From assembly GCA_003096255.1 (NCBI GenBank), contig PIXS01000419.1:1-5045 (forward strand): a stretch of DNA of 5,045 bases, given 5' to 3'. Made by a program: the position numbers and the translations under genes. The stretch comes from Candidatus Bathyarchaeum sp. Lineage in GTDB: Archaea; Thermoproteota; Bathyarchaeia; Bathyarchaeales; Bathyarchaeaceae. Numbering within the stretch: the stretch's first letter is position 1; every line of letters begins with the position of its first letter. Shown here piece by piece: positions 177 to 3,963 of the stretch. A model generated the notes under the pieces. The model saw only the letters and a list, made by a program, of their open reading frames with translations, was not told the DNA's origin and ran no database searches.

Positions 177-416
177 TTACAGGAGTTGTTGTAGTTCGCT
201 CCATTTTTCCAAGAATTCTCGTCCCCTCTTGGTTGCCACGTACTTGGTTGAATCGTTGTGGACTTCCAGAAGTTCCAGCGTTTGCAGTTCAGAGAGATAA
301 TGCTGGAGCATCTTCCATGACAGGTTTGTTCCGTACATAACATGTGTCTTGGTTCTCGGTTCTGAACACAAATCGAGAATTTCTGCCATGATTTCTATAC
401 GGTCTCTCTTAACCAT
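177..416 (-). CDS. Small archaeal winged-helix transcriptional regulator (HTH_45 / ArnR1-like)
   Basis: The 79-residue protein begins MVKRDRIEIMAEILDLC and continues with a helix-turn-helix region (TKTHVMYGTNLSWKMLQHYL), then LELLEV and a wing (STKYVATKRGREFLEKW). The order 'I..IL..c....KT.iMY..NLSw..l..YL..L...glle......Y..T..G..FL' is characteristic of the archaeal one-domain winged-helix proteins near PF14947. Family recognition is by eye. The ATG at 416 is preceded by an in-frame TGA two codons upstream, so the start is well bounded. It probably binds DNA as a dimer in the cytoplasm; its target is unknown. It is the last of a run of minus-strand genes but lies 163 bp from the tRNA and probably has its own promoter. 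A palindrome at 429-440 may be its operator. Confidence 0.8.
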   Translation of the reverse strand: MVKRDRIEIMAEILDLCSEPRTKTHVMYGTNLSWKMLQHYLSELQTLELLEVHNDSTKYVATKRGREFLEKWSELQQLL

Positions 417-464: not shown

Positions 465-629
465 TGTATCTGTTTTGTATCTCTGTAGAACACCATTTTT
501 TCATTAAAAGCCCTCTATTGTGCCCTTTCCAAGCACTATACTGCATTCAACAACAATTTACCCTAAGCAGAAGATTTGGTGGCGCCGAGGGAGGGATTTG
601 AACCCTCGCGACCCAATGGATCACAGGCT

Positions 630-644
630 TTCCGTAGTCGGAGG
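630..644 (-). other. tRNA-Ser intron 3 (15 nt, canonical position 37/38)
   Basis: This lies after A37, the standard archaeal intron site. Bulges AAC (646-644) and AAA (631-629) flank a weak central helix CTG (650-648) / CGG (634-632). The tetranucleotide GGAA occurs at both boundaries (648-645 and 633-630), so the exact cut could slide by a few bases without changing the mature tRNA. Removal gives loop CTGGAAA. The anticodon stem that would serve as its outer helix exists only once intron 2 is gone, suggesting an order of splicing. Confidence 0.75.
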
Positions 645-652
645 TTCCAGGC

Positions 653-673
653 TTATGCTTCCAAAGTTGGAAT
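653..673 (-). other. tRNA-Ser intron 2 (21 nt, anticodon stem, between positions 29 and 30)
   Basis: Inner hairpin TTCCA (672-668) / TGGAA (663-659) with loop ACTT follows a 5' bulge AGA (675-673). The 3' bulge is AAG (654-652). The central helix GAGC (679-676) / GCAT (658-655) is imperfect, with two G-C pairs, one A-A mismatch and one G-U. Cutting after the second bulge base joins CAG to GCC and creates the perfect 5-bp anticodon stem. Introns at 29/30 are known in archaeal tRNAs. The stem restoration is the stronger evidence. Confidence 0.75.
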
Positions 674-688
674 CTGCTCCCTACCAGA

Positions 689-708
689 TTTCCCGCAACA
701 TGGTTGCT
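689..708 (-). other. tRNA-Ser intron 1 (20 nt, D loop, after position 15)
   Basis: In the precursor, exon TCCT (714-711) pairs with intronic GGGA (694-691) as a 4-bp central helix. A 3-nt bulge AGA (710-708) is followed by inner helix GCAAC (707-703) / GTTGC (699-695) with loop CAT. The second 3-nt bulge is AAT (690-688). Cutting after the second base of each bulge gives D loop AG+TCTGGTA, the standard archaeal 9-nt form. There is no clear outer helix, so this is a relaxed BHB motif. The same TCCT pairs with exonic GGGA (681-678) after splicing. Confidence 0.8.
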
Positions 709-748
709 CTAGGAGACCTCGGCACAACACTAGAATAGCAACAGACCT

Positions 749-776: not shown

Positions 777-1802
777 CTATTGCTGAGTTTTGCGCCACAT
801 TTTCGGGTACATACCCCGTGGCATTAGAACCCGCTGAGTTTTTGCTACAAAACCGTGGTCCATCTTCAGCATCTTTTCGGAAGAGACCGTGGCTTGGGCT
901 ATTGTTATGGCTTCTCCCTTCTGGGTGAATGCTGCAACGGTGTCGCCGATTTTGATTCCAGAGTCCAAGGCCAGCACTCCGGGAGCGGTTAGGTGGGCTC
1001 CGTGGCAGAGGGCGTCAACTGCAGAGTCTCTTACAATGATTTTTGGGATTAGCTCTAGGGCTTTTTCCATTGGGTACACGAATTTTCTGAGGAAGGTTTC
1101 GTCTTTGGTTTCCTGCCATTGACTGTACAGGTAAGAGATGTCGTGGAGGGTGACTAGGCTTTCGTCTTCTTTGAAGGGTCCGACTCGTGTTCTGCGAAGT
1201 TCTTGCATGTGGGCGCCGCAGCCCAGTACTTCGCCGATGTCGTAGCAGAGTTTCCGTATGTATGTTCCTGCTTCGCAGCCGACCCTGAAGAGGACGTTTC
1301 GGTTGTCCATTTCGAGGAATTTGTTGTAGTAGATTGTTCTTATTCTGAGTTGCCGTTTAACTGATGAACGGACAGGTGGTCGCTGATATAGTGGTCCTTG
1401 GAATTCGTCTAAAACTTTTGTTACTTTGTCTTCTGGAACTTCAGAATGAAGTCTCATTACGCAAACATACTCTTTTCCTGCCAAGAGAAGAGCCTGAATT
1501 ACCTTTGTAGCATCCTCTATGGCAGTGGGTAGAATACCGGTGACTTTGGGATTTCCCCGGCTACGTTAAGCCTCAAGGGTCCCGCCGTGACCGGCGCTTT
1601 CTAGGCTGAGGATCCGTTTTAGCCATGCTGTAACTTCGTGACTTGATGGTCCAGCAGGCTTGTCCAAGTTTATTATTCCAAATCGCATGTGATCTTTGAT
1701 TGGGCGTTCTTCGGGTCTGTGACCGAAGCGCATGTTGGTTTGTTCCTCAGCTTTGACTACCAGAGTTCGCTTGATTTCCCATGGCTCGTTGATTGTTCGC
1801 AT
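777..1802 (-). CDS. cbf5: H/ACA RNA-guided pseudouridine synthase Cbf5 (dyskerin/TruB family), intron-containing
   Basis: Cbf5 is the catalytic subunit of H/ACA ribonucleoproteins, with Nop10, Gar1 and L7Ae, and converts uridine to pseudouridine in rRNA and tRNA. Two frames join into one 334-residue protein: exon 1 1802-1574 and exon 2 1552-777 (229+776 = 1005 nt). Exon 1 carries INLDKPAGPSSHEV and AGHGGTL. The joined codon gives Asp77, followed by PKVTGILPTAIEDATKV. Asp77 lies in the family's GTLDP motif and is the expected catalytic residue. KEY (103-105), GTYIRKLC (172-179) and LRRTRVGPF (195-203) complete the TruB domain; residues about 245-323 form a PUA domain ending RVLMPRG. The length is normal for archaea. 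ATG at 1802 has GGAG at 1813-1810, seven bases upstream. It follows rpl14e by 60 bp, a common archaeal pairing. A GTTAAAAG box (1839-1846) may give it its own promoter. Confidence 0.96.
1553..1573 (-). other. 21-nt bulge-helix-bulge intron in cbf5, splitting the catalytic Asp77 codon
   Basis: The precursor folds into a complete BHB. The outer helix is GGGA (1583-1580) / TCCC (1551-1548), and the central 4-bp helix is CCCT (1579-1576) / GGGG (1558-1555). The 3-nt bulges are TGA (1575-1573) and AAA (1554-1552). The inner helix is GGCT (1572-1569) / AGCC (1562-1559) with a 6-nt loop. Cutting after the second base of each bulge joins G to AT and makes GAT (Asp) in the family motif GTLDP. Unspliced, the frame stops at TAA 1568-1566 after 78 codons. 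Introns in cbf5 are known from Crenarchaeota. A 21-nt length would keep frame, but the in-frame TAA blocks read-through, so this is not a simple insertion in the protein. Confidence 0.93.
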
Positions 1803-2583: not shown

Positions 2584-2633
2584 CAGAAAAAAGCTATTTT
2601 TCAACAATCTGCTGCTATTAGGAGCCTAATATG
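2584..2633 (-). terminator. Proximal copy of the tandem hairpin plus T-run element, overlapping the NosD-like stop codon
   Basis: The hairpin TATTAGG (2616-2622) / CCTAATA (2625-2631) includes the stop codon of the NosD-like gene (TAG, 2628-2626). On the minus strand a T6 run (2592-2587) follows, with more T-rich sequence after it. The copies lie 92 bp apart. Most likely a terminator of the NosD-like transcript. Confidence 0.5.
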
Positions 2634-3963
2634 AACGCTTAGATTGTCGGTTCTTGTGTAGCCTCTTCCTATAGATTATAGCCACCAAGGTTGCGGTGAT
2701 TAGCAGCGGCAGAATGGTCCATGATGGGAACTCTGGAATCGTCTTCATTAAAGGATAATTGTCTTGGTTGTGTTCGTCAATAACGTAGGGTGTGTCAGTT
2801 ATGCCGTTTCCGTTGCTGTCTGTGCCGTTGTAGCTGCCCCAGTAGTTGCCTTCAGTTCCGTTGTCCCAGATGTTTGATGATTCTCCTACAGTGTAGACAG
2901 GTTCGGTGTTGTTAACGAAGTTGTTATGAAAAAAGTGGTTATTCTCAGAATAGTATAGGTAGATGCCGTTTGCTGCGTTTCTGCTTATGTTGTTGCCAGA
3001 GATAGTATTGTCTGAGGAGCCGCACAGGTAGATGCCGTGAATGTTTTCAGCTATGTTGTTTTGGGTTATTGTCGAGTCTGTAGTTTGAGCTAACAGCAAA
3101 GCCTGTCCGTTGTGGCTGAGGTCAAGGTTTTGGGCGGTTATGCCTGAGCAGTCTACAAGAGCCACATATCCTGCGTCAAGAGGAACAGCATCGTCTTGTC
3201 GGTTAACCCAGTAGATGATTGGTTTTCCATCCACAGTGTTAGACGCGTCAATGTCTTGGATGAATTCTGGAAGATGTGAACCGAATACGCCAAAGTTGCC
3301 TCCGTTGTCTCTCAAATCGTTATCTCTGAGCATGTTGTTTGAGTAGTCATCAATGCGGATGCCTAACCCATTGTCTCTGATAGTGTTTCCCAAAACTTGG
3401 TTATCGTCTGAAGATGTAGAAAGCCAGATGCCATCCTGACCGTTTCCCGTTATTCTGTTCTCTCTTATTTCATTGTTTGAAGAACTGCGAAGCCAGACAC
3501 CGGGATAGTCGTTTCCGGTGATGTCGTTGCCACTGATTGTGTTGTTGGATGATGCAGACAGGTAGATGCCATAGAAGTTACCTGTTATGTTGCTGTTTGA
3601 TAGGTTGTTGTTATGAGAAGAATTAAGGTGGACTCCATAAAAGAAGCCGCTGACAGCTAGGTTCTGGACGGTCACATTTGTTCTTTCCCTCAGACTTATT
3701 CCTGTTCCAACATCTGTCCCTTCAAGACTGAAGTCTGACCCATCAATCACAACATCATCTTTTTCCACGACAACAGATCCAAAAACGTCGCCAGTGAAAA
3801 CGTAGAGGTTTCCATCTCGCAGTATTTTGTTTGTTCCATCTACGCTTCCGTCAGCATTGATGAATATGGTTCCGTTTGCCTCTACAGGCAAGATAATCGG
3901 AGCAGCCACAGATATCACACATAGACTCAGCAACAAAAAGAACAGGAAGGGCAACTTGTCCAT
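2626..3963 (-). CDS. Secreted NosD-like right-handed beta-helix protein with PEFP C-terminal membrane anchor
   Basis: A 445-residue exported protein. Residues 1 to about 21 form a hydrophobic signal peptide (LPFLFFLLLSLCVISVAA). From about residue 60 to 370 it consists of beta-helix coils of 22-24 residues with repeats such as SSNNTISGNDITGN, GVWLRSSSNNEIRENRITGN and GIYLYYSENNHFFHNNF, as in NosD/pectate-lyase-like proteins. Around 245-292 lies a distinct segment, DGKPIIYWVN...VPLDAGYVALVDC, that I recognise from archaeal NosD-like surface proteins. Residues 373-396 (NYWGSYNGTDSNGNGITD) match the usual NosD end and look calcium-binding. The C-terminus has IPEFPSW (409-415), a hydrophobic helix (about 415-431) and a basic tail, so the protein is held outside the cell; PEFP could be an archaeosortase-type signal. 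It is rich in N-X-S/T sites. The substrate is unknown; no nos operon genes are nearby, so a role in nitrous oxide reduction is not suggested. Confidence 0.88.
   Translation of the reverse strand: MDKLPFLFFLLLSLCVISVAAPIILPVEANGTIFINADGSVDGTNKILRDGNLYVFTGDVFGSVVVEKDDVVIDGSDFSLEGTDVGTGISLRERTNVTVQNLAVSGFFYGVHLNSSHNNNLSNSNITGNFYGIYLSASSNNTISGNDITGNDYPGVWLRSSSNNEIRENRITGNGQDGIWLSTSSDDNQVLGNTIRDNGLGIRIDDYSNNMLRDNDLRDNGGNFGVFGSHLPEFIQDIDASNTVDGKPIIYWVNRQDDAVPLDAGYVALVDCSGITAQNLDLSHNGQALLLAQTTDSTITQNNIAENIHGIYLCGSSDNTISGNNISRNAANGIYLYYSENNHFFHNNFVNNTEPVYTVGESSNIWDNGTEGNYWGSYNGTDSNGNGITDTPYVIDEHNQDNYPLMKTIPEFPSWTILPLLITATLVAIIYRKRLHKNRQSKRSY

What the first reader, a model, noticed from the sequence alone, without database searches (positions are those of the whole stretch)
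1553..1573. A 21-nt BHB intron splits the catalytic aspartate codon of cbf5
The two frames of Cbf5 are interrupted at GTL|D, and the intervening bases fold into a complete outer helix, 3-nt bulge, 4-bp helix, 3-nt bulge and inner helix. Splicing at the standard positions yields GAT for Asp77, the expected catalytic residue. Without splicing the product ends at residue 78. The enzyme can therefore be active only if tRNA splicing endonuclease and ligase process its mRNA, which links RNA modification to RNA splicing. cbf5 introns are known in Crenarchaeota; whether this position and unusually small size match theirs is unknown to me.
Basis: partly seen in the sequence, partly recalled or inferred. 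Interest (0 to 1): 0.8.

Follow-up and report, generated by a model that had tools for sequence, protein, structure and literature searches.

The report
Tiny mRNA intron in archaeal Cbf5
A 21-base intron interrupts the codon for the catalytic residue of an archaeal RNA-modifying enzyme, at the site of the one well-known archaeal mRNA intron; relatives show that this intron also occurs in Bathyarchaea and Asgard archaea, and that the frame-preserving copies read here all carry a stop codon.

Summary
Window 1573-1553 (minus strand) is a 21-nt insert between G and AT of the Asp77 codon of cbf5. Removing it gives a 334-aa Cbf5; unspliced, translation stops after residue 78. Insert and flanks fold into a bulge-helix-bulge (BHB) whose usual cuts regenerate GAT. 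It is the archaeal cbf5 intron published from Desulfurococcales and Sulfolobales (PMC2738675; 16-44 bp, same codon and phase), so neither position nor size is new. The host is new: the Cbf5 is 91% identical to that of Candidatus Bathyarchaeum. I read 102 distinct intron-bearing junctions, all at the same nucleotide: in 35 of 61 sampled genomes of the Bathyarchaeum phylum and 13 of 75 of the phylum of the Borrarchaeota and Jordarchaeum genomes, but 0 of 123 in three further phyla. Exon codons and intron covary as the BHB requires. All 35 frame-preserving introns read contain an in-frame stop (29 first, 6 fresh); shuffling predicts about 10 of the 29. Splicing is inferred; no transcript was seen. 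Verdict: new member of a known kind. Its spread makes the intron older, or more often regained, than the published range suggests, and the stop-codon rule points to selection against read-through.

The parts
1574..1802 (-). cbf5 exon 1 (codons 1-76 and the G of codon 77)
   Evidence: 78-aa ORF matching the N-terminus of TIGR00425/NF003280
1553..1573 (-). BHB intron, 21 nt, phase 1 in the codon of catalytic Asp77; in-frame TAA at 1568-1566
777..1552 (-). cbf5 exon 2 (AT of codon 77 to the stop)
   Evidence: dN 0.041 and dS 0.51 against L001 over both exons
1580..1583 (-). BHB outer helix, 5' strand GGGA (exon 1), pairs with 1551-1548 UCCC (exon 2)
1576..1579 (-). BHB central 4-bp helix, 5' strand CCCU (exon 1), pairs with intron GGGG 1558-1555
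   Evidence: compensatory changes across 102 junctions
1573..1575 (-). 5' bulge UG|A; cut inferred between 1574 and 1573
   Evidence: cut rule between second and third bulge residues from PMC2738675
1552..1554 (-). 3' bulge AA|A; cut inferred between 1553 and 1552
   Evidence: same rule
1559..1572 (-). inner hairpin GGCU-UAACGU-AGCC within the intron

Best explanation
It is a BHB pre-mRNA intron of cbf5. The transcript folds so that exon 1 (GGGA CCCU) pairs with exon 2 (UCCC) and with the 3' end of the intron (GGGG). The archaeal tRNA-splicing endonuclease (EndA) cuts both 3-nt bulges after their second base, and an RNA ligase, most likely RtcB, joins the exons, making the GAU codon of catalytic Asp77. 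Unspliced mRNA yields a 78-residue fragment. Shown here: position, reading frames, BHB covariation, constraint on both exons, recurrence across genomes, EndA and RtcB genes in relatives. Inferred: cleavage and ligation in this organism. Also inferred: the in-frame stop is kept because a full-length Cbf5 lacking the Asp would be harmful or wasteful in the H/ACA particle.
For: Exact restoration of GTLDPKV and full-length family scores. Four-part BHB in the MFE fold. All 102 distinct intron-bearing junctions begin with G and end with AT (90) or AC (12), so all restore Asp. Central-helix pairs swap C-G, U-A and A-U: 97.8% paired, shuffle mean 88.7%, maximum 91.2%; slid by 1-2 bases 48-65%. The outer helix is complete in 71 of 102 intron-bearing against 1 of 122 intronless genes. 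L001, the nearest relative, has the same 21-nt insert with one change in the loop, and dN 0.041, dS 0.51 over both exons (0.041 and 0.60 in exon 2 alone), so the part after the stop is under purifying selection. PF01974 (EndA) in 15 of 15 genomes tried, two copies in 10; RtcB in 10 of 10, four of them intron carriers. Published: splicing shown for crenarchaeal members (PMC2738675).
Against: No transcript of this organism was seen and no genome is held for the window, so its own EndA is unseen. P0001, 97.3% identical to the spliced L001 product, is uninterrupted: it could be cDNA or a gene that has lost the intron. P0002 lacks about ten codons across the site, unexplained. Fold energy alone is not exceptional. 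31 of 102 outer helices are incomplete and 8% of the junctions lack one or more central pairs.
Confidence: 0.95

Rival explanations
1. Translational recoding: ribosomes hop over the 21 nt or read through the TAA, with no RNA splicing.
For: The insert is a multiple of three with a single in-frame stop; published crenarchaeal cases were once taken for frame-shifting (PMC2738675, passage).
Against: Insert lengths run from 13 to 76 nt in all three classes modulo 3 (29, 34, 39), which one recoding device could hardly serve. Read-through would leave Glu instead of Asp77. The base pairs that covary are those of the BHB.
Confidence: 0.02
2. Assembly error or pseudogene.
For: No genome is held for the window; an uninterrupted relative P0001 exists.
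Against: A 21-nt insert stands at the same place in the separately deposited L001-L004, with differing letters in L001, L002 and L003; low dN/dS against L001.
Confidence: 0.01
3. Origin, rival to deep ancestry: the intron was gained many times at this one codon, by retro-insertion or lateral transfer, rather than inherited from an ancestor of Thermoproteota and Asgard archaea.
For: Patchy: at least 20 changes of state on the Cbf5 tree of 223 rows, 104 with intron; intronless Bathyarchaeia interspersed, and Asgard carriers in several separate groups. The count of changes cannot tell gain from loss.
Against: Same nucleotide and phase in all 102. I saw no other short intron inside cbf5 in the listed matches of the surveys; other breaks seen were intein-like insertions near residue 180, contig ends, and apparent frameshifts or fragments. 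Intronless genes almost never have the outer helix (1 of 122), so the site is not obviously predisposed.
Confidence: 0.35
4. The in-frame stops are a by-product of sequence rules of the hairpin or of shared descent, not of selection against read-through.
For: Related introns share the motif GAG GCT TAA; non-3n introns also carry frame-0 stops fairly often (28 of 50 of 18-36 nt); one of the six fresh cases, L299, closely resembles the earlier L111.
Against: 29 of 29 against 28 of 50 (Fisher 5e-6, not corrected for kinship); other frames of the same introns 10 and 7 of 29; 8 clusters at 70% protein identity still give P about 2e-4; 6 of 6 in a fresh sample.
Confidence: 0.3

Closest known systems
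Crenarchaeal cbf5 pre-mRNA intron (Yokobori 2009, PMC2738675, read in parts; Watanabe 2002 and Yoshinari 2006 seen only as references)
   Same: Gene, codon, phase, BHB-type motif, cut rule, size range (21 bp in D. amylolyticus)
   Different: Host is a Bathyarchaeum-like archaeon, outside Desulfurococcales and Sulfolobales, the only carriers in that study; here a canonical 3-4-3 BHB, where most structures newly shown there were called unconventional
Archaeal tRNA and rRNA BHB introns
   Same: Motif and presumed enzymes
   Different: Host is an mRNA
[quoted passage not shown]
   Same: EndA acting on an mRNA
   Different: Located in a UTR, not inside the coding region
Eukaryotic 3n introns with in-frame stops (Yarrowia, PMC2911113, passages; Jaillon et al. 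cited there)
   Same: Stop-free 3n introns are avoided
   Different: Spliceosomal introns, explained there by nonsense-mediated decay, which I recall no archaeon being known to have

Membership tests
Archaeal cbf5 BHB intron | Host gene is cbf5 | tested here: met
   TIGR00425 462.8 bits and NF003280 466.7 bits for the spliced product; PDB relatives
[quoted passage not shown]
   position as in PMC2738675
Archaeal cbf5 BHB intron | BHB or BHB-like fold with cuts after the second bulge base that give the exon borders | tested here: met
Archaeal cbf5 BHB intron | Short, 16-44 bp | tested here: met
   21 nt; Table 1 of PMC2738675
Archaeal cbf5 BHB intron | Removed from the mRNA in vivo | not testable with these tools
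   No transcript data; P0001 is compatible with cDNA but its source is unknown
Archaeal cbf5 BHB intron | Host has hetero-oligomeric EndA | tested here: inconclusive
   Two PF01974 genes in G002, G003 and G004, one found in G001; subunit types not examined; window genome not held
Archaeal cbf5 BHB intron | Confined to Desulfurococcales and Sulfolobales (published range, not a definition) | tested here: not met
   Nearest relatives are Bathyarchaeum; many more carriers

The most novel reading that the evidence does not exclude
The cbf5 intron is not a crenarchaeal acquisition. It was already present in a common ancestor of Thermoproteota and Asgard archaea, was lost many times, and is kept where it remains as an obligate checkpoint: a cell can make active Cbf5 only while EndA and the ligase have capacity to spare, and an in-frame stop or frameshift ensures that no catalytically dead full-length Cbf5 enters H/ACA particles. 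It would be an ancient translation-proof mRNA intron next to eukaryotic origins.
Probability: 0.4. Interest if true: 0.75.

Novelty: new member of a known kind. Interest (0 to 1): 0.55.

Why it matters
The cbf5 intron is described as the one reported BHB intron in an archaeal mRNA coding region (PMC7714728, passage), and the 2009 study found it in Desulfurococcales and Sulfolobales only, inferring that it existed in their common ancestor. Finding it at the same nucleotide across Bathyarchaeia and in Asgard genomes reopens when it arose and whether it was inherited or regained. The in-frame stop rule gives a directly testable hint of what selection acts on. Practically, gene callers that do not know the intron will split the gene.

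Tried and rejected
Chance fold: not settled by folding energy; covariation speaks against it. Pseudogene or assembly error: rejected by independent assemblies and dN/dS. Rfam: no relevant match. A spliced Bathyarchaeum tardum protein (L003) was searched for an identical uninterrupted copy that might be cDNA: none among the 120 listed of 4424 matches; the best intact hit was P0001 at 80%, and P0134 (250 aa, 92% over 75% of the query) fits an exon-2 piece. One apparent frame-preserving, stop-free intron, L279 from the phylum of G222, is an alignment artefact: HSGTLD is intact inside the supposed insert. It is dropped from my counts; the printed totals (17 new carriers; 36 frame-preserving, 35 with stop) include it, without it 16, 35 and 35. 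The G125 genome (one intronless match and one intron-bearing copy on a 4-kb contig) was left out of the 13 as possible contamination; L251, its intron-bearing copy, does stand among the 102 junctions and in the tree. Six rows with intein-like insertions were left out of the tree. No shuffled-label test of the 20 tree changes was obtained. In the three intronless phyla 20 junctions were read; the others were judged from the length of single matches. The listing was cut short, so it was not used for a rate.

Full report
What is there. On the minus strand, cbf5 starts at 1802 and is interrupted after the G of codon 77; the frame resumes with AT at 1552 and ends at 777. The 21-nt insert holds an in-frame TAA, so the unspliced frame yields 78 residues. 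The spliced 334-aa product is Cbf5 by NCBIfam (462.8 and 466.7 bits), Pfam and solved structures. The predicted fold is outer helix GGGA:UCCC, bulge UGA, helix CCCU:GGGG, bulge AAA and inner hairpin. Cutting each bulge after its second base, as described for known members (PMC2738675, read in parts), gives exactly the ends that restore GAT.

Known or not. [quoted passage not shown] Its Thermoproteales, thaumarchaeal (2) and korarchaeal (1) entries have none. [quoted passage not shown] A 2020 paper, seen in passages, still speaks of one example, in Crenarchaeota (PMC7714728). So the window's intron is a known kind at a known site.

Whose gene. No genome is held for the window. The nearest record is Candidatus Bathyarchaeum L001 (91% over 337 columns). 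L001-L004 all carry a 21-nt intron at the same place. Of the 80 best loci kept from 211 in the genome collection, 29 carry the intron: 26 of 47 named Bathyarch*, plus L039 (a 'Thermoprotei' MAG), L043 (Borrarchaeota) and L061 (Jordarchaeum); 0 of 21 with euryarchaeal-type names.

Wider survey (unnamed species genomes; recounted). In the phylum of L001, of 61 genomes evenly drawn, 35 carry the intron, 24 do not and 2 had no readable junction. In the order of L001, of 81 genomes 65 had a match: 47 with intron, 16 without, 2 partial (with L068, L070 and L142). In the phylum of L043 and L061, of 79 genomes 75 had a match: 13 with intron, one more ambiguous (G125), one unreadable (G114), 60 without; 18 of these 60 were judged from one match without length excess and not fetched. 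In the phylum of a Methanolobus genome 0 of 57 readable (60 searched), in that of a Methanobacteriaceae genome 0 of 40, in that of the genome of L037 0 of 26 (28 searched). In searches of the held library I saw no report of the cbf5 intron in Bathyarchaeia or Asgard archaea; most hits were seen as listings only, and subscription papers and preprints are not covered.

Structure is selected. 253 loci had a readable junction, 224 distinct: 102 with intron (13-76 nt) and 122 without. All 102 restore Asp. In the central helix the second pair is C-G 74, U-A 18, A-U 8 and the third C-G 84, U-A 11; 97.8% of cells pair, shuffle mean 88.7% and maximum 91.2% (shuffles do not keep kinship). Gly74 is GGG in 83 of 102 with intron and 14 of 122 without; Pro78 is CCC in 77 of 102 and 29 of 122; a complete outer helix occurs in 71 of 102 and 1 of 122. 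Codon choice is thus tied to the intron, though kinship inflates these counts.

The stop-codon rule. 29 of the 102 introns keep the reading frame and all 29 contain an in-frame stop; shuffling their interiors predicts 10.2. In the two other frames the same introns have 10 and 7; non-3n introns of 18-36 nt have 28 of 50 (Fisher 5e-6). Collapsing carriers at 70% protein identity leaves 8 clusters, P about 2e-4. From a larger draw of the phylum (220 genomes, listing cut short), 83 listed spanning matches were from genomes not met before in this phylum's survey; six of them exceed the query span by 9 nt or more, and none of the rest does. I fetched all six: all carry a 3n intron with an in-frame stop. 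One of them (L299) resembles an earlier one (L111). Of the 73 non-3n introns, 49 meet a stop within the intron or ten codons after it when unspliced; further downstream was not examined. Avoidance of stop-free 3n introns is known in eukaryotes and linked there to nonsense-mediated decay (PMC2911113, passages). PMC2738675 notes that some cbf5 introns keep the frame and 'stop codon' does not occur in its text. My reading: a read-through Cbf5 without its Asp would compete in H/ACA particles. This is inference.

Machinery. All 15 genomes tried have EndA (PF01974), 10 with two copies; all 10 tried have RtcB, among them four intron carriers.

History. On a quick Cbf5 tree (223 rows, 104 with intron) at least 20 changes of state are needed. 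Carriers and non-carriers mix within Bathyarchaeia, and Asgard carriers form several groups, one next to an intronless row of the same phylum. Deep branches are poorly resolved, several long branches meet, and the count cannot tell gain from loss. I lean to deep ancestry with many losses because the site never varies, but repeated gain or transfer stays open.

Loose end. P0001, 97.3% identical to the spliced L001 protein, is uninterrupted on a 1568-nt contig. It may be spliced cDNA or a gene that lost the intron; I could not look at its DNA.

Noticed in passing
L238 25-2385 (minus); also L142, L252-L255, and G337: Cbf5 genes with an intein-like insertion near residue 180. In L238 it lies between RKL and CYDLG, begins CVPGDTE and ends VVSN before C. 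L238 and L142 also carry the intron upstream. Seen in the Bathyarchaeum order, in the Asgard sample and in one genome of the phylum of L037. Intein motifs recalled, not scanned; only L238 was read.
   Followed up: partly
window 580-723 (minus): Class II tRNA-like gene just downstream of cbf5 (acceptor GCCGAGG/CCTCGGC, T-arm GAGGG-TTCAAAT-CCCTC, encoded CCA), probably with one or more introns. ARAGORN misses it; 99% conserved in L001 beside cbf5. Mature form not worked out.
   Followed up: partly
P0002: A Cbf5 of 331 aa, 80% identical to the L002 product, lacks HGGTLDP at the junction (reads RAGRGNPKVTG) as if about 30 nt including the stop were removed: artefact, mis-splicing or another deletion.
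   Followed up: no
P0001: Uninterrupted Cbf5 97.3% identical to the product of the intron-bearing L001: spliced cDNA or recent intron loss.
   Followed up: partly
L121 (G063): Longest intron seen, 76 nt, at the same site.
   Followed up: no
L129, L143, L145, L146, L148-L150: Introns of only 13 nt with almost no room for an inner helix, shorter than the published minimum of 16.
   Followed up: no
G125 (L251 and a second match): One genome with an uninterrupted cbf5 match and a divergent copy with a 17-nt intron: duplication or contamination.
   Followed up: no
window 177-416, 1863-2132 and 2626-3963 (all minus): Sso10a-type winged helix protein, ribosomal protein L14e just upstream of cbf5, and a NosD-like beta-helix protein.
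   Followed up: no
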